From: Gammaproteobacteria bacterium
Lineage (GTDB): Bacteria; Pseudomonadota; Gammaproteobacteria; CAIRSR01
Length of the DNA stretch: 33,294 bases
Assembly: GCA_963575715.1 (NCBI GenBank)
Contig: CAUYTW010000177.1
Location: 1-33,294, forward strand
Reading direction: 5' to 3'
Shown: piece by piece, positions 4,791-24,283 of the stretch
Position numbering within the stretch: position 1 is the first letter of the stretch
Layout of the letters: the number at the start of each line of letters is the position of its first letter
The notes under the pieces: model-generated
Database searches by the model: none
The model's input: only the letters and a program-made list of their open reading frames with translations
Told to the model about the DNA's origin: nothing
Made by a program: the position numbers and the translations under genes

Positions 4791-5630
4791 TTACTTGCGT
4801 GTCGAGGGGCCATTGAATTTGAGACCGTTGGCCATAACCGTAAGGAAATACTCCAGATTGCGGTATTCCTCGCCCTGTAGTTCAAAGGGCTTGGCGCGCA
4901 CCTGTTCATTGCAGCCATGGAAACGACGATGCAGGGTGCCCAACTCTCCCCAAGTCGAACGATATACCGGCCAGCTCGTGGCATGACCCAGCGCCGGACT
5001 CAAGACATCGCTGCGCAACAGCTTGCCAGCATTCCAGGCATGACAATTGGCGCAGGAAAAATTAAGTTGCCCCCGACGTGCAAACCAAAATTGCCTGCCC
5101 TGCTCATAAGCCGCCATCGCTTTTGGGTCATTCTCCGGGACCGCGACATCAATGGTCTGACCACGCGAGGAATAGGCCATATAGGCAGTTAGCGCCGCCA
5201 GCGGTCCTTTCTCGTAACTCAATGGTTTCTCGCCATTGGCCGTGCGGCAGTCATTAATCGCCAATTCCATGGTAATCACCATACCGCGCCGCTTGTCCCA
5301 GTGCGGGTAATTTTTACGCTGGGCAGGCCCATCTGGGAAGCAGTCGAGATAACTCCGGCCATTGGCGAATGGGGTTTTCCACATCGTCTTTCCTTGATCG
5401 ATGAAGGGGTCATACGGAGGAAATTCCTCAATGGCCTTCCAGCTTTCACGTCCCATGGGATCAATGGCATACACCCCATCGACAAACTCATCCCTGGAGA
5501 CATCGGGAAATTTTTCCAAGAAATAATGCTGGAAGCGTTCGGTATCCTCTTTTGGACCCGCGAGGCTGACGCCCGGCAAGGTCAACGCGAGACCAAGAAC
5601 ACCGACAAAGGCACTTATTTTCCGCGACAT
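4791..5630 (-). CDS. soxA: Sulfur oxidation c-type cytochrome SoxA, mono-heme type
   Basis: With SoxX, SoxA forms the complex that couples thiosulfate oxidatively to the carrier SoxYZ in the periplasm. Of 279 residues, a signal peptide ends near SLAG. Only one heme site is visible, CANCH at about residues 193-197. The active-site cysteine (persulfide heme ligand) is in the conserved FHGCNEQVRA at about residue 240. The N-terminal heme of diheme SoxA is absent; two isolated cysteines (LDCFPDG and NDCRTANG) sit where mono-heme family members carry a disulfide. The start is ATG 5630 with GGAG nine bases upstream; GTG 5645 would add five residues. The gene begins 23 bases after the soxX stop. Confidence 0.95.
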   Translation of the reverse strand: MSRKISAFVGVLGLALTLPGVSLAGPKEDTERFQHYFLEKFPDVSRDEFVDGVYAIDPMGRESWKAIEEFPPYDPFIDQGKTMWKTPFANGRSYLDCFPDGPAQRKNYPHWDKRRGMVITMELAINDCRTANGEKPLSYEKGPLAALTAYMAYSSRGQTIDVAVPENDPKAMAAYEQGRQFWFARRGQLNFSCANCHAWNAGKLLRSDVLSPALGHATSWPVYRSTWGELGTLHRRFHGCNEQVRAKPFELQGEEYRNLEYFLTVMANGLKFNGPSTRK

Positions 5631-5653
5631 GATCGATTTCTCCACGGTGCGCG

Positions 5654-6010
5654 TTATTTTGACCAGATGAAATCAACCACTTGGTCGATTTCTTGATCGG
5701 TTAGCATCTGGTGGCCGCCAAAAGGCGGCATGGAGGTTTCCGGGTTAGCCGTGGTGGCGTCCCAAATCTGGGCACGTAATTTCGCCTTGTCGGGATAACG
5801 CGCCTTAATGCCGACGAGGGCCGGGCCAATATTGCCGGGGGAATCACCACCCTCAATTTGGTGACAGGCCAGACAGTTTCCCCTGGCGCGATCAAATGCG
5901 ATCTCCTTGCCAGGTGCGCTGCTGTTGGTGGTCGTGGTAGCGGCGAGAACCCCGCCGCTCATGGCCAGGGCTACCACTATCCACGAAAAATGGTTTTTAG
6001 TGCCAAGCAT
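5654..6010 (-). CDS. soxX: Sulfur oxidation c-type cytochrome SoxX
   Basis: Mono-heme partner of SoxA, 118 residues. It has a signal peptide (about residues 1-23), a heme-binding CLACH at 46-50 and a probable methionine ligand in TSMPPFG (Met94). The C-terminus, LTDQEIDQVVDFIW, is typical of small cytochromes c. ATG 6010 is preceded by AAAGGA with a six-base spacer; codons upstream to 6142 run through a mobile-element fragment and are not family sequence. It is the first gene of the operon. Its promoter must lie in, or just beyond, the MITE-1 fragment at 6034-6102. Confidence 0.93.
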   Translation of the reverse strand: MLGTKNHFSWIVVALAMSGGVLAATTTTNSSAPGKEIAFDRARGNCLACHQIEGGDSPGNIGPALVGIKARYPDKAKLRAQIWDATTANPETSMPPFGGHQMLTDQEIDQVVDFIWSK

Positions 6011-6033
6011 GAAATTTCCTTTGGTTGACGTTG

Positions 6034-6102
6034 TAGTGGATAACAATAGCACCTCTCCCAAAGAGAGAGGGGAGAAAGACAAATAGGTAGCAACTTGAAT
6101 TA
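6034..6102 (-). mobile_element. MITE-1 fragment upstream of soxX
   Basis: The end AATAGGTAGCAACTTGAATT (6082-6101) matches the terminal repeat of the complete MITE-1 copy at 12024-12190. The other side, GTGGATAACAATAGC, matches in inverted orientation the segment that lies just inside that same terminus. CTCTCCCAAAGAGAGAG in the middle corresponds to the pyrimidine/purine arms. It looks like a shortened, rearranged copy filling the whole gap between soxX and the next gene. Confidence 0.6.
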
Positions 6103-6104
6103 GA

Positions 6105-6395
6105 TTATTGCTCGCAGGTACGAGTACGTGTAATAGTTCCATCTATATTTTGTGTTTCCGTCCAGGGACTACAATTTTTGAGGATCGCTTGTTGTGGAAA
6201 AGATGTGCTTTGTTGAATTATTTTTTGTTCAACGGGCTTTTGGTTTTGAGCAACTTCATAGCCAATAATACCGCCAATTATGCTCGGCAATAACCAAGTC
6301 CATCCACCGCCTCGATATCCATGCCCATATCCATACGCCATAGCCGTATTCGTTGCAACAAATAATACTAAAAATAACAATATTGATTTTTTCAT
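6105..6395 (-). CDS. Small secreted glycine-rich protein, hypothetical
   Basis: A 96-residue protein starting at ATG 6395, with AAGGA six bases upstream. A signal peptide (MKKSILLFLVLFVATNTAMA) is followed by YGYGHGYRGGGW, a short hydrophobic glycine-patterned stretch (PSIIGGIIGYEV) like a small glycine zipper, a Gln-rich linker, and a C-terminal NCSPWTETQNIDGTITRTRT with two cysteines that could form a disulfide. I know similar 'SPWTET...DGxxTRTRxC' endings from small outer-membrane-associated proteins, but no function can be given. The stop is three bases before the MITE-1 terminus, so the C-terminus may have been affected by insertion. It lies upstream of soxX on the same strand; a direct role in sulfur oxidation is not implied. 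Confidence 0.7.
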   Translation of the reverse strand: MKKSILLFLVLFVATNTAMAYGYGHGYRGGGWTWLLPSIIGGIIGYEVAQNQKPVEQKIIQQSTSFPQQAILKNCSPWTETQNIDGTITRTRTCEQ

Positions 6396-6462
6396 CAAAT
6401 TTCCTTGTTAGTTTGAGACCTCCCCCTTCAGGGGGATTAGTTAAATTTGATAACGATGCGTA

Positions 6463-6500
6463 AGCATCTTTATCCTTATTTGGTAACCTCCTCGTTTACG
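6463..6500 (-). repeat. 38-base repeat (copy 2 of 2), upstream of the small secreted protein
   Basis: Second copy of the sequence at 4226-4262. Here the downstream frame ATGCTTACGCATCG is short and stops after eight residues. GATGCGTAAGCATC (6455-6468) is a small palindrome at its edge. A CCCCC/GGGGG hairpin (about 6422-6435) lies between it and the gene start. Confidence 0.5.
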
Positions 6501-6839
6501 TTGAAACCTATTTGCCTTTCTCCCCTCTCCCTTTGGGAGAGGGGCCGGGGGTGAGGGAAAATTAATCATTATAGGAGTTACGCAGTTGAATTTGTAACTC
6601 TATACAGGATTGAGTTTTTTCTGTCATTCTACGCGGAGGTCGCGTTAGCGACCGGAGTCGCAGAATCTATATGTAGTATGTAGATGGATTCTGCGACTCC
6701 GCTTCGCTGCGCGCAGAATGACTTCCTATTTTTCAACTGTGTAACTCCTACATTAGTTAAAAGTCCCTCACCCCAACCCCTCTCCCAAAGGAAAAGGGGC
6801 TATTTTGTTATCCACCATAATAGGTAGCAACTTGGGTTA
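6500..6839. mobile_element. MITE-1 copy interrupted by MITE-2
   Basis: The left part (6500-6571: ACCTATTTGCC, then CTCCCCTCTCCCTTTGGG and GGGGGTGAGGG) and the right part (6751-6839: CATTAGTTAAAAGTCCCTC to the terminus AATAGGTAGCAACTTGGGTT) align with the two halves of the uninterrupted element at 12024-12190. The far left terminus is degraded. Between the halves sits a complete MITE-2 at 6574-6748. No coding capacity is visible. This fills the 448-base gap downstream of the DUF1566 gene. Confidence 0.8.
6574..6748. mobile_element. MITE-2, complete copy (about 175 bp), TA target duplication
   Basis: The termini GGAGTTACGCAGTTGAA and TTCAACTGTGTAACTCC are inverted repeats (16 of 17). Both are flanked by TA (6572-6573 and 6749-6750), as for the IS630/Tc1-mariner group. 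Inside, CATTCTACGCGGAGG and its partner GCGCGCAGAATG form a second long inverted repeat, so the transcript would fold into a long hairpin. No transposase is encoded; movement would need one from elsewhere. Confidence 0.82.
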
Positions 6840-6846
6840 ATAATGT

Positions 6847-9132
6847 CTATTGAACGGTATAAGTCCTGGTTAGCTGGTTGTTTGCCTCATTGGATTCAGC
6901 GGTTTCGCACCAGCTATCCACAAAGGCGCGCAGCGTCCTGGAACCCTTACTCGTTGCGTTTAATGTGATCGTCATGGTTTTACTCACGCCCGCCGCCAGG
7001 GTGCCAACATCAACCCAGGCGTTGCCCACCGCGCCGCAGGTCTGGATCGTGGCCTGATTGGTCCAAATATCTAGGTATCCTCCTTCCCCGCCTGCCGTGC
7101 CCTGATTTTTAATGGTTACGGTAACGGTGAAAACGCTGTTGGCTGTGGGGCTGACGGGATTCAGGACAAGGCTGGTGACCACGAAGTCTGGTTGACGACT
7201 GGCTGCCCTGAGTTCAACGCTGACTTCGTTTGACAGCGCACTGGTGCCCGCCGCATTGACAGCGGCCATTTTGAAGAAATACTTCGATCCATTGGTCAAT
7301 CCGATGATGACCACGCTGGTTCCGGTGACGCTGGTTTTGACCGGAGTCGTTGATTCACCGCCCGCTGTAACACCCTGATAAATTTTATAACTGGTGGCTC
7401 CCGTCACCGCCGACCACTTCAGCGTCACCTGAGAATAGCCCGCGACTGCGCTGGCAATCACCGGCGCAGCCGGGCGCGCCAAGAAGCTCGCGGTTACCGC
7501 TTTTGCGGCGTCCATGGTCACGACGCAGGAAGTGCTGGTTCCCGCGCAGGCTCCAGACCACTTTGTGAAAATCGACCCCGTGGCCGGCGTTGCCTTCAGT
7601 GTCACGACGGTACTCGGCGCGTAGTTTTCGCTGCAATCCGTCCCGCAAGTAATCCCCACCGGTGTACTGCTCACCGTGCCGCTTCCAGTGCCGGATTTCA
7701 CGACCACCAAGGAATAGGTTGCTGGATCGAAAGTCGCGGTTACCGTCGTGGCCGCATTCATCGTTACCGTGCAGGTGCCCGTTCCCGAGCAGCCGCCACC
7801 GCTCCAGCCCGCGAAGGTCGAACCTGTGGCCTTTGTCGCGGTTAGCGTCACGCTGGTTCCAGATGAATAATCCTCCGTGCAGTCCGTACCACAATCAATC
7901 CCCGCCGGGCTGCTAGAGACACTTCCGGCACCAGCACCCGTCCTGGTCACGGTCAGTTTGTTCCTCGAAGGCTCGGTACCCAAAATATCAAATGACTGTC
8001 CAGCGCGCACGAGGCGCACCTGGAACGCGTCACCCTTAGCGCCGCTGTAGGCGTACCCATCGTAGAAATGGACGTACCACGCGCTACCTGAATAGCCGGC
8101 GGAGGCCGAAGCCGACCAAAAACCCGACGCGGAGGTTGGAAAATAGTTGCCATCAATACTTGGAGAATAACGACCATAATCAACCAACGATATCAATTCC
8201 TTGATATTGGGCAGACGCCAATCATTGTAATTTGCCAGGCGCGTATCCTTCGCGGCGGTCAGTGCCTGTGTCCAAGTCAGGCCGGAAGCAGTACCGGTAC
8301 AAGCATCACCGCCATAGATCTGCCCTACACTGCACTTGGCCCACATGAGTCCAGTGCAGCCATCCGTGACGGTTCCGTCCAGATTATCAGTCAAATTGAC
8401 AATACACTGTCCAGCGCGCACGAGGCGCACCTGGAACGCGTTAAGCTCATTGCCGTAGTCGGCGTTACCACTGTCGAAATTGACGTACCACGCGTTACCT
8501 GAATAGTTGGCGTCGGCCGAAGCCGACCAAAAACCCGACGCGGGTGTGTTAGGGAAATAACTCACATCAATGTAAGTACCACCCGAGGTAACGCCATAAT
8601 GCACAATGCCGGTCAGTTCCTTGATGGTGGGCACACGCCAGTCATTGAAGCCGCAGAGACCTGAAGCATTGACGGTGGTGACAAAACTGCCCATGGCTTT
8701 GTCCCAGGTGTAGGTGTTGTCCTTGTCGCGGACACCACCATCATCGGTTTTAACCTCCCAAAGAAAGCCGGTGACATTGTCGCGGGTGCAGGCCCAATCT
8801 TTTGGACCGGTGCCAAGAACAGCGGAGACGGGAAGTTCGCTGCCGTCGTTAGCAATTTTTGTGAAATCAAACCCCACCCTGCCATCACCAACCTTAACCA
8901 GCTTACCCGCTGCGGCTTCGGCATCGCGTCCATAGCGACCATCCTGGCGCGGATTGACGGCGCTGTCGCCGGTGGTGGCTGCGGTACAGATGGATAAAGC
9001 GCCGTCGTCATTACTGCATACCGCCATGCCGGTGTCATTCAGCGCCCCGAGGGTGCCGACGGCGTGGGAAATATTTGAAAAACTTATTAAGGATAAAAAA
9101 TAACTTAGCAAAATTGTAATGATTGATTTCAT
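6847..9132 (-). CDS. Secreted multidomain protein with two DUF1566 domains; probable DGR variable protein
   Basis: A 761-residue exported protein. A signal peptide (about 1-24) precedes two DUF1566 (C-type-lectin/FGE-like fold) domains at about 110-241 and 250-378. Each contains NDWRxPxIKEL and ends in FQVRLVRAGQ. Two cysteine-containing divergent InlB-B-type repeats follow (about 391-470 and 471-551; GxDCGTDC and CTVTMxxA motifs), then a fibronectin type III domain (about 555-640) and a CARDB-like domain (about 647-760, VTIKNQGTAGG and ESNEANN). The two DUF1566 ends differ almost only at codon positions 1 and 2, the signature of DGR mutagenesis (see the two segments listed separately). The likely role is ligand binding or adhesion at the cell surface. 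ATG 9132 gives a canonical signal peptide. No reverse transcriptase or template is seen nearby. Confidence 0.88.
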   Translation of the reverse strand: MKSIITILLSYFLSLISFSNISHAVGTLGALNDTGMAVCSNDDGALSICTAATTGDSAVNPRQDGRYGRDAEAAAGKLVKVGDGRVGFDFTKIANDGSELPVSAVLGTGPKDWACTRDNVTGFLWEVKTDDGGVRDKDNTYTWDKAMGSFVTTVNASGLCGFNDWRVPTIKELTGIVHYGVTSGGTYIDVSYFPNTPASGFWSASADANYSGNAWYVNFDSGNADYGNELNAFQVRLVRAGQCIVNLTDNLDGTVTDGCTGLMWAKCSVGQIYGGDACTGTASGLTWTQALTAAKDTRLANYNDWRLPNIKELISLVDYGRYSPSIDGNYFPTSASGFWSASASAGYSGSAWYVHFYDGYAYSGAKGDAFQVRLVRAGQSFDILGTEPSRNKLTVTRTGAGAGSVSSSPAGIDCGTDCTEDYSSGTSVTLTATKATGSTFAGWSGGGCSGTGTCTVTMNAATTVTATFDPATYSLVVVKSGTGSGTVSSTPVGITCGTDCSENYAPSTVVTLKATPATGSIFTKWSGACAGTSTSCVVTMDAAKAVTASFLARPAAPVIASAVAGYSQVTLKWSAVTGATSYKIYQGVTAGGESTTPVKTSVTGTSVVIIGLTNGSKYFFKMAAVNAAGTSALSNEVSVELRAASRQPDFVVTSLVLNPVSPTANSVFTVTVTIKNQGTAGGEGGYLDIWTNQATIQTCGAVGNAWVDVGTLAAGVSKTMTITLNATSKGSRTLRAFVDSWCETAESNEANNQLTRTYTVQ
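7999..8118 (-). other. DGR-type variable region 2 (residues 339-378)
   Basis: It encodes SASASAGYSGSAWYVHF and then YDGYAYSGAKGDAF, followed by the constant QVRLVRAGQ. At nucleotide level it is identical to region 1 over the 27 bases leading in and about 37 bases at the 3' end. In between, 14 codons differ, 13 of them only at positions 1 and/or 2. Examples are TCC against GAC, GGC against AAC, TAC against GAC, and GCT against AAT. Confidence 0.75.
8410..8529 (-). other. DGR-type variable region 1 (residues 202-241)
   Basis: It encodes SASADANYSGNAWYVNF and then DSGNADYGNELNAF, followed by the constant QVRLVRAGQ. Several variable codons are AAC or AAT, the template-like state for adenine-directed mutagenesis. 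The constant GC-rich 3' segment next to the variable part is where an initiation-of-homing site would lie. Confidence 0.75.
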
Positions 9133-9367: not shown

Positions 9368-11434
9368 ATGAAGCAAGAAGAACCGTTACGTTTGCTGATC
9401 ATTAGCGAATCCTGGAACGAAGCTGAAGTCCTTACCAACCACCTACGCAATGCCGGTTACATCGTTCGACCGCTAAGAGTCGAAGATGAAGAACGTTTAG
9501 CGGCAGTTGTGCGCGATCAAGATTGGGATTTGCTACTGCATTTACCAGATGATGCCTTGGATGTGGAACTTGCTACCGTCCTTGCTTTATTGGCGGATAG
9601 CCGCAAGGACATTCCGCTCATCGTGGTGTCGGATAATATTTCTCCCCAGCGAAAGCTCGAATTTTTGGAGGTGGGAGCTAGGGATACCGTTCCGAATACT
9701 CCACCTGGTTTATTACAAAAGGTAGTGCGCCGTGAATTGGAAGGGCTGCGTCTGCGTCGTGGGTTTCAAGCGTGTCAAGATTCACTTAGGGAAACCGAAC
9801 GACGCTGCCGAATTTTGCTGAACAACGCACGGGATGCTATTGCTTATGTCCAAGAAGGAGCGCATATCCTCGCTAATCCAGCCTATCTTCAGATGTTCCA
9901 GTTTGCTGATGTTGATGAAGTCATTGGTGTTCCTCTCCTTGACATGGTACCTCCAAGTACTCATCACTCATTGAAAAATTTATTACGCGCCGCAGAGCGT
10001 CCAGGAGGCAGCGGAGAAGTTCAATCCCTGGAAAGTCAAGCTCTGCGTAGCGATGGTGGACATTTCTTAGCACGTTTCGAGATAACCCCTACCATCCTTG
10101 ATGGAGAAACTTGCATTCAAGTAGTTATTCATGATTTATCACCAACCACTGAATTTCAGGATCAAATTAACGAACTCTCTCATCGAGATTTTTTAACTGG
10201 ATTATATAACCGTCAATATTTCCTCCAAGAATTGAATCGAACCTTGCCCAATAAGCCAGGCATGATTTATCTAACGGTAGACAACTTGGCGACACTACGC
10301 AATAAATTGGGAATTGCTGGAACCGATCAGGCACTCAAGGAAATAGCAAATATAATTATCCGTCACACGGAATCCAGTGATTTAGTGGCTAATTTTAGCG
10401 ATGGTGTGTTTACCATTCTCGCTACTCAGGGAGAAGAATTTCGTTTACGTACTCTTGCCGAGCGAATCCGAAAAAAACTTAGCCATGAAATGATCGAAGT
10501 AGGAGGACTTAGCGTTAATGTCAGCGCCAGTATTGGTTTTCACCATTCTAATCTGGATGTCAAGGACAGCCAAACATTACTGACGCGGCTGGAAGCTGCG
10601 GCGTTGGCCGCCCGTGAAGGCAAAGGAACAGGCATCATGGTCTGTTTTGAAGATTCCAAAAAATCCAACGTGGAGGAAAGTATCAGTATCGTAAAAACGG
10701 CACTGGAACGGAATCAATTCTTTTTCCTGTATCAACCCATTGTGTATTTACGAGGCGATGGGCGTGAACTCTATGAGGTTTTTTCACGGCTTGCTGGCCC
10801 CAATGGCGGACAACCAATTCCTGCGCAAGTAATGCGGCTTATTAATGACACCCACCTGCCGTCAGCGGTGGATCGCTGGACAATCTCACGACTCCTAGAG
10901 GTAATCTCGAATCGACAGACGCGACATGGTAAACCGCTACAAGTATTGGTTGGGTTATCCTTGGATACGCTATTGGATGAAGCGTTTCCCTCTTGGCTCG
11001 GAGGAAAATTAAAATCATTGGGTGTGCCCCCAGCGTCGCTGATTTTACAAGTCGATGACAACCTTGTTGTTGACCATTACCTTAGAATGCGTTTTCTTAT
11101 TCCTTCACTGCATGGGTTGGGTTGTAGTTTTGCTTTATCAAATTATCGCGGCAGTGCGGTATCCTCACAATTAAGCCAACTCAGCGTTGATTATTTTAAA
11201 ATCGACGGTAGTATCATCCGCGATTTAGCAATTAACCACGAACATCAATTTTTAGTACGAACCATCAATGAACAAGTTCATGAACTTGGTAAGCATACTC
11301 TCGCTGAATCGGTTCGAGATGCAAACACGTTAAGCTTGCTTTGGCAATATGGAATAGATTATATCCAGGGTGAATATTTACAGAAACCTTCAGAAACGAT
11401 GGATTACGATTTTTCTAATTTATTTATTGAATAA
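9368..11434 (+). CDS. FimX-like degenerate REC-PAS-GGDEF-EAL protein
   Basis: 688 residues, close to the length I recall for Pseudomonas FimX, with the same domain order. A CheY-like receiver without clear phospho-Asp occupies about 1-125, PAS about 145-265, a GGDEF domain about 275-430 and an EAL domain about 445-680. The GGDEF motif is replaced (FSDGVF) and EAL is replaced (YEVFSRL), so neither cyclase nor phosphodiesterase activity is expected. FimX proteins bind cyclic-di-GMP through such an inactive EAL domain and promote type IV pilus assembly and twitching. The start ATG 9368 has GGAG (9358-9361) as ribosome site, supplied by the RNA-like element that ends on this ATG. The gene is followed within 13 bases by a convergent small gene. 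No pil genes are in the window. Confidence 0.82.
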   Translation: MKQEEPLRLLIISESWNEAEVLTNHLRNAGYIVRPLRVEDEERLAAVVRDQDWDLLLHLPDDALDVELATVLALLADSRKDIPLIVVSDNISPQRKLEFLEVGARDTVPNTPPGLLQKVVRRELEGLRLRRGFQACQDSLRETERRCRILLNNARDAIAYVQEGAHILANPAYLQMFQFADVDEVIGVPLLDMVPPSTHHSLKNLLRAAERPGGSGEVQSLESQALRSDGGHFLARFEITPTILDGETCIQVVIHDLSPTTEFQDQINELSHRDFLTGLYNRQYFLQELNRTLPNKPGMIYLTVDNLATLRNKLGIAGTDQALKEIANIIIRHTESSDLVANFSDGVFTILATQGEEFRLRTLAERIRKKLSHEMIEVGGLSVNVSASIGFHHSNLDVKDSQTLLTRLEAAALAAREGKGTGIMVCFEDSKKSNVEESISIVKTALERNQFFFLYQPIVYLRGDGRELYEVFSRLAGPNGGQPIPAQVMRLINDTHLPSAVDRWTISRLLEVISNRQTRHGKPLQVLVGLSLDTLLDEAFPSWLGGKLKSLGVPPASLILQVDDNLVVDHYLRMRFLIPSLHGLGCSFALSNYRGSAVSSQLSQLSVDYFKIDGSIIRDLAINHEHQFLVRTINEQVHELGKHTLAESVRDANTLSLLWQYGIDYIQGEYLQKPSETMDYDFSNLFIE

Positions 11435-19600: not shown

Positions 19601-22600
19601 GTGACTAATTCAACAACCGTTGTGCCGTCTAACCCAGTTACCCACAATAATTCTGCATCCCAATTAGATAAGCCTTACGTCGTTGGCATTGGTGCGTCGG
19701 CGGGGGGACTGGAGGCATTAGAAAGATTTTTCGGCGCTATGCCCGCCGATAGCGGCATGGCTTTCGTGGTGATCCAGCATTTATCTCCTGATTTCAAAAG
19801 CATGATGGATGAACTTCTCGGCAGGGTCACTCCGATGAGCATCCGCCAGGTCGTCGAATTGATCGATATTCATCCCGATACGGTTTACATCCTACCGCCG
19901 CGCAAGGAAATGGTGATTCGATCTGGAAAGTTGCTAACCCAGGACAAGCCTACTGATCAGCAACTTAACATGCCGATCAATACTTTTTTTCGATCATTGG
20001 CGCGTGAGCAGGGAGATCGTTCAATTGCCATTGTGCTCTCCGGTACGGGTAGCGATGGCAGCATGGGCATTCAGGACGTGCATGAGGTTGGCGGATTGGT
20101 GTTCGCGCAGGATGAGGAAAGCGCCAAGTTCGATGGCATGCCTAAAAGCGCGATGAACACGGGCTGCGTCGATGTTTGCCTGGCACCGGAGAATATGCCC
20201 GCCATTTTGCTCGAATACCTCAGAAATCCTTCGCGCATCTTGCTCAATTTGCGATCCGAGCGACACCCGGGTGAGCCACTGACCGGAATCGCGGCGGTTT
20301 TGGAAAAATTAAAGGAAATTTACGATCTCGATTTCAGCTTTTACAAATCAGCCACGATTACTCGCCGCATTGACCGCCGGGTGATGCTTGGCGGCTCCGG
20401 TATTTTTCAGGATTACATTGATTTGGTGTTGCGTGATCTGGGCGAGCTTGATCGCCTTTATAAGGATCTATTAATTGGAGTCACCCGTTTTTTTCGTGAT
20501 GAAGAGGCATTTATCAGCATTGCAAAAACCGTGATTCCATTAATTTTGGATTCAACTCCGGCTGAGTCGGAGATTCGGGTATGGATACCGGCCTGCGCAA
20601 CCGGAGAAGAGGCTTATTCGTTAGGAATGTTATTTCTTGAAGCATTCGAGCAGCGTAAGCGTGAACCTAATCTAAAGATTTTTGCCACTGATATGCACCG
20701 CGACTCCCTGCAACGTGCGTCCGAGGGATTGTATAACGCGGAAGATCTTAAAGCCATTATGTCAACGCAACGCCGTGAATATTTTTTCATTCATGAATCG
20801 AATGATATTTATCGTGTTATTCCATCCTTACGCAAATTATTAATTTTTTCTCAACATAATCTTATCAAGGATCCGCCCTTTACTCGAGTTGATTTGGTCA
20901 GTTGCCGTAATTTATTAATTTATTTTGAACAACCCGCGCAAAACAAAGTATTGGCTTCCTTTCATTTTTCACTAAAGCCACACGGCTTTCTACTTCTTGG
21001 GCCTAGTGAAGGCACCGGAGACCTGGCGTCTGAATTCGATACCATTGACCGACAATGGAGAATTTTTCGCAAAACTCGTGATGTTCGCTTGCCGTTCGAC
21101 ATGCGTGGTGGTCTGAAATTATTATCGGGAAAATCTCCAATTCATCCTTTCGCCGCGCAAGGCACACGGTTGCCCTATGTTTATGATGAACTGCTGAATC
21201 GCTATATGCCAACTGGCGCATTGGTCAATGAACGCCGTGAAGTCCTCCATATTTTTGGTAATGCCGCGCGTTTCTTGAAGCATTCCACCGGACAGATAAG
21301 TAACGACATCATGGATTTAACCCATGGTGATCTCCGCATTGCCCTGGCATCGGCGCTGCAAAACGTTGGCAAGAAAAACGAACGTGTTGAACTCAAGGGC
21401 GTGCGGCATGTCGATGCCGAGGGAGAAATCATTTTCAACATCATCGCGGAGCCAGTTGATGACAAATATCGTGGTGGTAAATTCACCATGATGTTGTTTC
21501 AGGAAAGAGTGCCGTTGGTCCCTCGTGAACCACAGGCGGTTCCTAATTTTGATGTTAGCGAGGAAGCTCGCCAGCGCATTCTTGGCCTGGAACAAGAGTT
21601 ATTACATACCCGCGAGGCACTGCAATCGACCATTGAGGAATTGGAAACTAGCGGTGAGGAACTTCAGGCTAGTAATGAAGAATTGCTGGCTTCCAATGAG
21701 GAAATGCAGAGTACCAATGAAGAGCTGCATTCCGTAAATGAAGAATTATACAGTGTCAATTCTGAGCATGAACAAAAAATCAATGAGCTAAATGAATTAA
21801 CCGCAGATTGGCGCAATCTGATTCGTTCTATCGATATCGGTATCGTATTTCTTAGAGAGGATTATAGTATTCGACTATTTTCTCCCAAGGCGACGGAAAT
21901 TTTTAATTTGTTGCCGCAAGATGCTGGCCGCGACATGCGTCACATTACCTCACGGATCGCCAATGATGATATTTTCATGGTGCTTCCCCGTGTTTTCAAA
22001 AGCCGACGTTCGGAAGAAAGTAAATTGACCTGTGCCGACGGGCGTACTTTCCTGCGCCGCGTTCTGCCATATGAAGGGCCAGATAAATCTGGTTCAGGTA
22101 TTGTTATTACCCTGGTGGATGTTAGCGAATCGGCGCGTGCCGAAATTTCTCTGAGAGAAAGCGAAGCACGTTTTCGTGGCATTATTCATGCGTTCTGCGA
22201 GGGAGTATTGTTGATTAATCGTGATGGCCTAGTATTATCCTGCAATGAAGAGGCGATGCGGCTATTGGCAACGCCAGCGAACGAGATGATCGGAAATAAA
22301 TTTTTCGATATCCAGGGATTACAGGTATTGAGGGAAGATGGAATTCCCTTCCCGGAAGGAGAATCGCCCATAGCCCGAGCATTATCAAGCGGTGCCTCGT
22401 CGCGTGGAACGCTCATTGGATTACGCCACCAGTATGTGAGCGATTTGTGGGTCATCGTGAATGCCGAGCCAATTATTGTACCGGATGAGCAACAGGTGTC
22501 GGTGATGCTCTTCACGCTGACGGATATCACCGAGCGTAAATTGGTCGAGGAGCAATTACGCATCGCGGCGGTTGCCCTGGAAGCTTGGGAAGGCATGATG

Positions 22601-24283
22601 GTCACTGATACAGAGGGAACTATTTTGCGTGTTAATCATGCCTTCACGAAAATCACCGGATATTCCATGGATGAAATAATAGGACGCAAGCCATCACTGC
22701 TTAAATCTGGAAAACATGACGCGGATTTTTATCGCCAGATGTGGCGAAAACTGAATCAGGAAGGTTGCTGGCAAGGTGAGATATGGAATCGAAAAAAAAA
22801 TGGCAAGAATTACCCACAATGGCTGACTATCTCCGCTGTCAGAAATACTAACGGCCTACATACTCACTATGTAGCAACCTTTTTCGATATTTCTGACCGC
22901 AAGCAGGCCGAAGAAAAAATTCGGGAAATGGCTTTTTATGATTCGTTGACCAACCTGCCCAACCGCCGTCTCCTAATGGATCGGCTGGAACAGGCTCTCG
23001 CCACCAGCGTTCGCAGTGGCCAATTTGGCGCGCTGGTTATGCTAGATTTAGATAATTTTAAAACTATCAATGATGTATATGGACACGCTACAGGTGACAA
23101 ATTTTTAATCGATGTCTCCGAGCGTATCAGGCGTACTGTTCGAGATAGTGATACCGTGTCTCGTTTGGGTGGTGATGAATTTGTTCTGATACTGGAAAAT
23201 TTCGGCATAGACGAATTCACTGCCGGTGCTCATGCACAAAAAATGGTCAACAAGATTCTCACGGTCCTAAATGAACCTTATTATTTTCCCGTGGATCAAA
23301 AAATAGAACGTTATGATACTTCGGCGAGTTGTGGTATCTGTTTATTTCAAGGACAAAAAAATTCAGCCGAGGATGTACTGAAACACGCAGATGTTGCCTT
23401 GTATCAAGCAAAAGATGCTGATGGTAATACAAGTAGATTCTTTAGTGAAATTACCCAAATCGAAGTCAATCATGCTGCACAAATGGATGCTAATTTGCGT
23501 CTCGCCCTCAGAGAAGAGCATTTTCAGCTATATTTTCAGCCGCAGTTCGACCGGGATAACCGGATAATCGCCGCTGAGGCGTTAATTCGCTGGCTACCGC
23601 CGAATGGAACCATGATTAACCCCGTTGAATTTATCCCCTTCGCAGAAAAAAATGGGCTAATTCTGCCGATTGGCAACTGGGTACTGGAATCAGCTTGCAA
23701 AACATTAAAAGAATGGTCCAAAAATCCTTACACAAGATCTTTGCGACTCGCGGTCAATATCAGCGCCCGACAGTTCCACGAACCCTTATTTTGCGAATCG
23801 GTCTCTAGTGTATTGCAACGTCATGAAATTGATCCCACAAAACTAGAGCTGGAATTGACCGAAAGCGTGGTCATTAACGACATTGGTCAAGCCATTGCTA
23901 AAATGAACGCAATCAAAAAATTAGGTATTGCCTTGTCCCTGGATGACTTTGGCTCGGGTTATTCTTCGCTCACCTATCTTAAGCGGCTACCTTTTGAAAA
24001 ACTCAAGATTGATCGAGAATTTATTCGTGACATCATGAGTGATTCGGACGACGCGGTGATCGTGCGTACCATTATTGCTATGGGAAAGGCGTTACGACTG
24101 GAAGTGACCGCTGAGGGTGTAGAAACTGAGGAACAATTTCAATATCTCGGCCAACAAGGTTGTCGATTATTTCAGGGCTATTTGTTTAGCCCACCGGTAC
24201 CACTCGCAGCTTTTAATTTGATTATGGAAAATAATTTAACACCTCAATTGAGGAAGAAAATTTCTGCCAGTCAAAAAAAATAA
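19601..24283 (+). CDS. CheB-CheR-PAS-GGDEF-EAL hybrid signalling protein
   Basis: 1560 residues. The CheB methylesterase domain (about 25-210) has its triad visible as Ser33 (GASAGG), His60 (IQHLSP) and Asp152 (GTGSDGS). The CheR methyltransferase (about 225-490) has the SAM loop ACATGEEAYS and CRNLLIYF. A Glu/Asn-rich coiled coil (about 675-735, repeated SNEE/TNEE) and three PAS domains (about 735-1100) follow. The GGDEF domain has an intact GGDEF and an RxxD inhibitory site (RDSD) five residues before it. The EAL domain has EALIRW, DDFGSGYSSL and AEGVETEEQ, so both cyclic-di-GMP activities look intact. It joins chemotaxis-type methylation with c-di-GMP turnover. The start is GTG 19601, only 24 bases after a MITE-2 terminus; the ribosome site is weak. 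Confidence 0.92.
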   Translation: MTNSTTVVPSNPVTHNNSASQLDKPYVVGIGASAGGLEALERFFGAMPADSGMAFVVIQHLSPDFKSMMDELLGRVTPMSIRQVVELIDIHPDTVYILPPRKEMVIRSGKLLTQDKPTDQQLNMPINTFFRSLAREQGDRSIAIVLSGTGSDGSMGIQDVHEVGGLVFAQDEESAKFDGMPKSAMNTGCVDVCLAPENMPAILLEYLRNPSRILLNLRSERHPGEPLTGIAAVLEKLKEIYDLDFSFYKSATITRRIDRRVMLGGSGIFQDYIDLVLRDLGELDRLYKDLLIGVTRFFRDEEAFISIAKTVIPLILDSTPAESEIRVWIPACATGEEAYSLGMLFLEAFEQRKREPNLKIFATDMHRDSLQRASEGLYNAEDLKAIMSTQRREYFFIHESNDIYRVIPSLRKLLIFSQHNLIKDPPFTRVDLVSCRNLLIYFEQPAQNKVLASFHFSLKPHGFLLLGPSEGTGDLASEFDTIDRQWRIFRKTRDVRLPFDMRGGLKLLSGKSPIHPFAAQGTRLPYVYDELLNRYMPTGALVNERREVLHIFGNAARFLKHSTGQISNDIMDLTHGDLRIALASALQNVGKKNERVELKGVRHVDAEGEIIFNIIAEPVDDKYRGGKFTMMLFQERVPLVPREPQAVPNFDVSEEARQRILGLEQELLHTREALQSTIEELETSGEELQASNEELLASNEEMQSTNEELHSVNEELYSVNSEHEQKINELNELTADWRNLIRSIDIGIVFLREDYSIRLFSPKATEIFNLLPQDAGRDMRHITSRIANDDIFMVLPRVFKSRRSEESKLTCADGRTFLRRVLPYEGPDKSGSGIVITLVDVSESARAEISLRESEARFRGIIHAFCEGVLLINRDGLVLSCNEEAMRLLATPANEMIGNKFFDIQGLQVLREDGIPFPEGESPIARALSSGASSRGTLIGLRHQYVSDLWVIVNAEPIIVPDEQQVSVMLFTLTDITERKLVEEQLRIAAVALEAWEGMMVTDTEGTILRVNHAFTKITGYSMDEIIGRKPSLLKSGKHDADFYRQMWRKLNQEGCWQGEIWNRKKNGKNYPQWLTISAVRNTNGLHTHYVATFFDISDRKQAEEKIREMAFYDSLTNLPNRRLLMDRLEQALATSVRSGQFGALVMLDLDNFKTINDVYGHATGDKFLIDVSERIRRTVRDSDTVSRLGGDEFVLILENFGIDEFTAGAHAQKMVNKILTVLNEPYYFPVDQKIERYDTSASCGICLFQGQKNSAEDVLKHADVALYQAKDADGNTSRFFSEITQIEVNHAAQMDANLRLALREEHFQLYFQPQFDRDNRIIAAEALIRWLPPNGTMINPVEFIPFAEKNGLILPIGNWVLESACKTLKEWSKNPYTRSLRLAVNISARQFHEPLFCESVSSVLQRHEIDPTKLELELTESVVINDIGQAIAKMNAIKKLGIALSLDDFGSGYSSLTYLKRLPFEKLKIDREFIRDIMSDSDDAVIVRTIIAMGKALRLEVTAEGVETEEQFQYLGQQGCRLFQGYLFSPPVPLAAFNLIMENNLTPQLRKKISASQKK

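What the first reader, a model, noticed from the sequence alone, without database searches (positions are those of the whole stretch)
7999..8529. Two DUF1566 variable regions in one protein show a diversity-generating retroelement signature
Seen: between residues 202-241 and 339-378, 14 codons differ and 13 differ only at positions 1 or 2 (AAC/GGC, AAC/TAC, AAT/GCT, GAC/TCC, AAC/GAC and so on); the exception is GGT/GGG. Of about 20 mismatches, 14 have A in one copy. The flanks (27 bases before, about 37 after) are identical, while codons elsewhere in the two domains have diverged at third positions. Known: DGR reverse transcriptases copy a template with mutation at adenines, typically AAY codons, into FGE/DUF1566-type C-terminal domains. 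Inference: both regions were overwritten from one adenine-rich template. Both variable regions lie inside the protein with about 380 residues after the second, which is unusual since variable regions normally sit at the C-terminus.
Basis: partly seen in the sequence, partly recalled or inferred. Interest (0 to 1): 0.92.

Follow-up and report, generated by a model that had tools for sequence, protein, structure and literature searches.

The report
Retroelement rewriting twin lectin domains
A bacterium uses a mutagenic copy machine (a diversity-generating retroelement), sitting on another contig of its genome, to rewrite two binding patches inside the same secreted protein, and does the same in at least six sister genes, so the kind of system is known but the placement in the middle of the protein is unusual.

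Summary
The missing parts, a reverse transcriptase and an adenine-rich template, are on another contig (C72) of the same draft genome. That cassette holds an intact DGR-type reverse transcriptase (IGNLTSQ and YVDD motifs, C-terminal MutS-I domain), an Avd-like gene and a template repeat (TR) reading ...NNSNNAWNVNFNNGNANNNNKNN.... Both window regions match the TR at 87 of 88 non-adenine positions and differ at 13 and 21 of 36 adenines. In all, 15 variable regions (VRs) in eight intact genes, plus degraded copies, come from this one TR. Seven genes carry two VRs each, none at the C-terminus; 280-820 residues follow. Multiple VRs per gene, DUF1566/Lcl_C targets and trans targets are all published, so this is a DGR with unusual architecture, not a new mechanism. 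One point looks new. In this reverse transcriptase clade VRs are followed by an 8-base-period TTTG repeat (13/19 VR flanks, 0/19 TR flanks, background 0.3%), and the internal VRs here carry it inside coding sequence (8/15 strict, background 0.17%). I found no conserved hairpin. The repeat's role is inferred; current activity was not tested because no reads were available.

The parts
6847..9132 (-). Target gene, 761 aa: N-terminus that looks like a signal peptide (by eye), two Lcl_C/DUF1566 domains, InlB-type B repeats, fn3, CARDB
8407..8811 (-). First Lcl_C (DUF1566) domain, ends with VR1
   Evidence: Pfam Lcl_C, two stretches in the protein; domain boundaries
8407..8541 (-). Variable region 1 (residues 198-242)
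   Evidence: 13/36 TR adenines changed, 1/88 other positions changed
8389..8409 (-). 3' flank of VR1, CAG TGT ATT GTC AAT TTG ACT: VR-type GGACAGT end plus loose form of the 8-base TTTG repeat, in coding sequence
7996..8406 (-). Second Lcl_C domain, ends with VR2; modelled as a C-type lectin fold
   Evidence: AlphaFold2 pLDDT 92.9; best PDB match Legionella Lcl C-terminal domain 8q4e
7996..8130 (-). Variable region 2 (residues 335-379)
   Evidence: 21/36 TR adenines changed, 1/88 other positions changed
7978..7998 (-). 3' flank of VR2, CAG TCA TTT GAT ATT TTG GGT: strict TTTGNNNNTTTG repeat inside coding sequence
6868..7950 (-). C-terminal part downstream of both VRs: InlB B-repeats, fn3, CARDB (probable surface stalk)
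   Evidence: Pfam PF18998, PF00041, PF07705

Best explanation
The window gene is a trans target of a diversity-generating retroelement. Steps shown here by sequence: (1) contig C72 of the same genome carries Avd, TR and reverse transcriptase in that order, with the RT start about 10 bases after the TR; (2) the TR differs from the window VRs almost only at adenines; (3) the same TR accounts for VRs in at least seven further genes on other contigs and beside the cassette. Steps inferred from the known mechanism: TR RNA is reverse-transcribed with errors at adenines, and the cDNA replaces the VR by homing at the shared 3' end (CTCGTGCGCGCTGGA, then G in the TR or C in the VR, then AGT). Each rewrite changes up to 17 codons on a C-type lectin surface of a probably secreted or surface protein, twice per protein, so a gene carries two separately diversified binding faces in front of a fibronectin/CARDB stalk. 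Also inferred: a TTTG repeat with 8-base period just after the VR helps mark it as target, and because it can be written in codons (Q-S-F-D-F-L and similar) the VRs are not tied to the gene's end.
For: TR and RT found in the genome. RT: the PDB hit far ahead of all others is 8ub7_A at E 1e-33; invariant SQ motif, YVDD-type site and catalytic D across 10 relatives. Avd-like gene (bAvd 9e-6, DivGenRetAVD 1e-6, both below curated cut-offs). For the seven freshest VRs, 119/251 adenine sites changed against 4/616 other sites, p = 4e-69. Substitutions A to G 151, T 88, C 28; the two adenines in the 3' block never change. Between the window gene and C305n or C99, third-base identity at same-residue codons is 0.67-0.70 in the backbone but 0.96-0.98 in the VRs. 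Homologous cassettes with A-biased TR/VR pairs and the same GGAGAGT/GGACAGT difference in relatives. Lectin fold. TTTG repeat statistics.
Against: No reads or second strain, so present activity is not shown. The assembly is a 363-contig draft, so target and cassette are linked by binning plus sequence match, not by one contig. The hairpin usual after VRs was not found. The closest held relative, G001 (same genus), has a VR-like copy but no match to this RT. The paralogous flanks in this genome are not independent of each other, so the repeat statistic rests mainly on the 19 flanks from other genomes.
Confidence: 0.95

Rival explanations
1. Ordinary gene conversion between the many Lcl_C paralogues homogenised the repeats; there is no retroelement step.
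For: The paralogues are many and share the region.
Against: Gene conversion does not place differences on adenines of one non-coding template (119/251 against 4/616). The donor lies between Avd and an RT, outside any Lcl_C gene.
Confidence: 0.02
2. The element was a DGR but is now dead; the window VRs are recent relics.
For: The VR next to the cassette has a 1-base deletion and frameshift. Four of the seven double-VR genes have non-adenine decay (3-26 mismatches per VR).
Against: The RT is intact with conserved catalytic motifs. Seven VRs have 0 or 1 non-adenine mismatch while their gene backbones are about 30% diverged at silent sites. The frameshift could be an assembly error or a one-cell event.
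Confidence: 0.15
3. The TTTG repeat after internal VRs is only a conserved protein linker (Q-S-F-D-F-L) with no role in homing. (This rival concerns the repeat only, not the DGR.)
For: It is in frame and encodes a similar linker in paralogues. G001 paralogues without a close VR match show near-miss versions.
Against: In relatives the same 8-base spacing (21 of 25 gaps) lies mostly in non-coding DNA after C-terminal VRs and never after the TR.
Confidence: 0.4

Closest known systems
Thiohalocapsa PB-PSB1 DGRs 2, 4 and 5 (PMC10907252)
   Same: Several VRs in one target gene (three in the single DGR 4 target); targets at DGR 4 and 5 thought to be diversified in trans by DGR 2; C-type lectin VR domains
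   Different: There the targets are intracellular conflict-system sensors (vWA, NACHT and similar); here they look secreted, with 280-820 residues of other domains after the last VR, and seven genes share the two-VR layout
DGRs with DUF1566 targets, e.g. Stenotrophomonas SKA14 and Vibrio cholerae 1311-69 (PMC6642488)
   Same: DUF1566 (Lcl_C) VR domains; one or two TRs serving several target genes
   Different: Separate target genes per VR in those examples, C-terminal in the Vibrio case; here two internal VRs per gene
Marichromatium purpuratum three-VR ORF (PMC3521204) and the 31 DGRs with several VRs in one ORF (PMC6642488)
   Same: More than one VR in a single reading frame
   Different: The Marichromatium ORF is FGE-type and was suspected to be an artefact; here the layout repeats in seven paralogues
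Bordetella phage BPP-1 DGR
   Same: Avd, TR and RT parts; IMH-like 3' block; adenine mutagenesis
   Different: Phage tail target in cis with a C-terminal VR and a downstream hairpin; here chromosomal, trans, internal, no hairpin found, RT with an extra MutS-I domain

Membership tests
Diversity-generating retroelement | Reverse transcriptase of the DGR group with (I/V/L)GxxxSQ motif | tested here: met
   IGNLTSQ and YVDD; invariant G, SQ and DD in a 10-member alignment; PDB chain 8ub7_A at E 1e-33
Diversity-generating retroelement | Template repeat near the RT, differing from VRs at adenines | tested here: met
   TR C72:1950-2090; 119/251 adenine against 4/616 other sites changed in seven fresh VRs
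Diversity-generating retroelement | Accessory protein (Avd, HRDC or MSL) | tested here: met
   Avd-like ORF C72:2240-2662, matches below curated cut-offs; MutS_I (the MSL accessory, PMC10053308) fused to the RT in 9 of 10 clade members
Diversity-generating retroelement | VR in a C-type lectin (or Ig-like) ligand-binding domain | tested here: met
   Model pLDDT 92.9; PDB matches Lcl C-terminal domain and C-type lectins
Diversity-generating retroelement | IMH/IMH* block at the 3' end differing between TR and VR | tested here: met
   GGAGAGT in TR; C in place of the central G in the VRs read; same in several relatives
Diversity-generating retroelement | Inverted repeat (hairpin) just after the VR; common but not strictly required (PMC12875486) | tested here: not met
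   No conserved hairpin in the 45 bases after the VRs of this genome; an 8-base TTTG repeat is found instead
Diversity-generating retroelement | VR at the C-terminus of the target (near-universal, not defining) | tested here: not met
   283 or more residues follow the last VR in all eight intact target genes (two run off the stretch read); 382 in the window gene
Diversity-generating retroelement | Adenine-limited variation among individuals; dependence on RT | not testable with these tools
   No reads, no second genome of the species

The most novel reading that the evidence does not exclude
In this RT clade the target is recognised by an 8-base-period TTTG repeat after the VR, instead of a hairpin. 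Because the repeat can be written in codons, one cassette can drive two internal binding sites per protein across a dispersed gene family, which removes the supposed reason why DGR variable regions sit at C-termini.
Probability: 0.4. Interest if true: 0.65.

Novelty: new variant of a known kind. Interest (0 to 1): 0.5.

Why it matters
A large survey of DGRs (PMC8144416) explains C-terminal variable regions by the need for non-coding signals just downstream. Here fresh rewriting occurs in the middle of genes with the candidate signal kept inside codons, so that explanation becomes testable by synonymous recoding. It would also mean diversifiable sites can be placed inside a protein, and it shows one cassette serving a dispersed family of double-headed lectin proteins.

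Tried and rejected
The RT on C38 looks group II intron-like rather than DGR (by eye); the C96 RT was not pursued. First AlphaFold job on both domains together failed (pLDDT 31.7), probably because only nine paralogues were in the alignment; a single-domain job with 58 sequences worked. A post-VR hairpin was looked for in this genome and in relatives: none conserved in this clade. Sequence search of the double-domain region against the PDB gave nothing. Searches for a paper naming PDB 8ub7 as a DGR enzyme, or describing repeats after VRs, gave nothing in the held library, which is not proof of novelty. Gene conversion without a retroelement was rejected on the adenine pattern.

Full report
OBSERVATION. 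The gene at 6847-9132 (-) encodes 761 residues. Its two Lcl_C/DUF1566 domains each end in a repeat, residues 198-242 and 335-379. Outside the repeats the two domains share third bases at 16/33 same-residue codons, inside at 25/26. The repeats were therefore copied from a common source long after the domains diverged.

THE MACHINE. A search of the window's own genome (3.70 Mb, 363 contigs, 99.4% complete) found three reverse transcriptases. A search with the window repeat found matches beside one of them, on contig C72. On the minus strand of C72 lie, in order: a single-VR target gene, an Avd-like ORF (2240-2662), the template repeat (about 1950-2090) and a 529-residue reverse transcriptase (352-1938). 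The TR would read ASGFWSASAYANNSNNAWNVNFNNGNANNNNKNNAFQVRLVRAGEW; it is not part of an Lcl_C gene. The RT has the DGR SQ motif and YVDD, and its PDB hit far ahead of all others is 8ub7_A at E 1e-33 (I believe this is the Bordetella phage enzyme, from memory, not checked). A MutS domain I lies at its C-terminus, weak here (E 0.008) but matched in 9 of 10 clade members, best 8e-10. MutS_I is the known MSL accessory (PMC10053308).

TEMPLATE AGAINST VARIABLE REGIONS. Sixteen VR copies were aligned to the TR over 124 bases. The seven freshest, including both window copies, have 119 of 251 adenine sites changed and 4 of 616 other sites (p = 4e-69). Older copies have the same kind of adenine changes plus 3-21 other changes. 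Adenine becomes G 151 times, T 88, C 28. The last two adenines, in the fixed 3' block, never change. The VRs have C where the TR has G in GGA(G/C)AGT.

TARGETS. Besides the frameshifted cassette copy and a degraded one on C34, the VRs lie in eight intact genes: window C177, C99, C36, C305 (two genes), C343 and C361 with two VRs each, and a second C72 gene with one. In none is the VR C-terminal; 283 to 821 residues follow, and two of these genes run off the stretch read, so their counts are lower bounds. The two VRs of a gene have similar age by non-adenine mismatches (pairs 1/1, 0/1, 1/0, 5/3, 9/13, 11/10, 21/26; Spearman 0.88, p 0.009, n = 7), as if a gene joins or leaves the active set as a unit. 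The sample is small.

FOLD. AlphaFold2 on the second domain with 58 homologous domains gave pLDDT 92.9. Best solved match is the Legionella Lcl C-terminal domain (8q4e, E 2e-4), then C-type lectins; the viral library gives DUF1566 proteins. Seventeen codons can vary per VR, about 2e19 theoretical proteins, with a stop possible at only one codon.

TARGET SIGNAL. No conserved hairpin follows the VRs here. In relatives of this RT (L034-L047), VRs are followed by TTTG repeats of 8-base period: TTTGNNNNTTTG in 13/19 VR flanks, 0/19 TR flanks, 0/50 VR flanks of more distant DGRs, background 0.3% of windows; 21 of 25 successive TTTG gaps are exactly 8. The internal VRs of this genome have the same pattern in coding sequence (8/15 strict, 11/15 loose; background 0.17% and 0.47%). 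A same-genus genome's internal VR copy also has it (CTTTTGGCTTTTTGG). I infer a cis signal for homing that tolerates being translated. Caveats: the flanks in one genome are paralogous, the pattern was defined after looking, and a protein-level reason for the linker is possible.

KNOWN AND NEW. DUF1566 targets, several VRs per ORF, and trans targets are published (PMC6642488, PMC3521204, PMC10907252). A signal within coding sequence has a precedent: hairpins inside target genes of nanoarchaeal DGRs (PMC4372165). The seven-gene twin-VR internal layout and the TTTG repeat were not found in the held papers, but that library is partial.

LIMITS. No reads, one genome per species, draft assembly, organism unnamed. 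Activity now, and the role of the repeat, are inferences.

Noticed in passing
L024 (contig C72) 2601-3668 (-): The target gene beside the cassette has a 1-base deletion in its VR, which shifts the frame and loses the usual ...RLVRAGQ end; real event or assembly error.
   Followed up: partly
L024 352-1938 (-) and L034-L046: The DGR reverse transcriptase is fused to a C-terminal MutS domain I (MSL accessory) across this RT subclade; L033, L039 and L041 have shorter RTs without room for it.
   Followed up: partly
L024, end of TR to RT start (about 1935-1955, -): The TR-specific G in GGAGAG(TGGTTTA)ATG makes what looks like a ribosome-binding site for the RT, so IMH* and RBS may overlap.
   Followed up: no
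L068-L073, L076, L087, L107 VR flanks: Other DGR clades show their own repeats after the VR, such as TCTG units at roughly 8-base spacing in Firmicutes; several archaeal loci between L055 and L078 show GCGCCGGAGGCGC inverted repeats.
   Followed up: no
L144 / L133 (genome G001, same genus, contig C100:80-210): A VR-like internal copy (23/37 adenine, 11/104 other mismatches to the window TR) in a genome with no match to this RT; likely a relic.
   Followed up: partly
L031 (contig C34) about 6236-6829: A degraded target copy with a stop codon and deletions still carries VR sequence.
   Followed up: no
window 9368-11434 and 19601-24283: Two large c-di-GMP signalling proteins (PAS/GGDEF/EAL; CheB/CheR-PAS-GGDEF-EAL) near the target gene; ordinary chromosomal context with SoxA/TsdA-type cytochromes at 4791-6142.
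   Followed up: no
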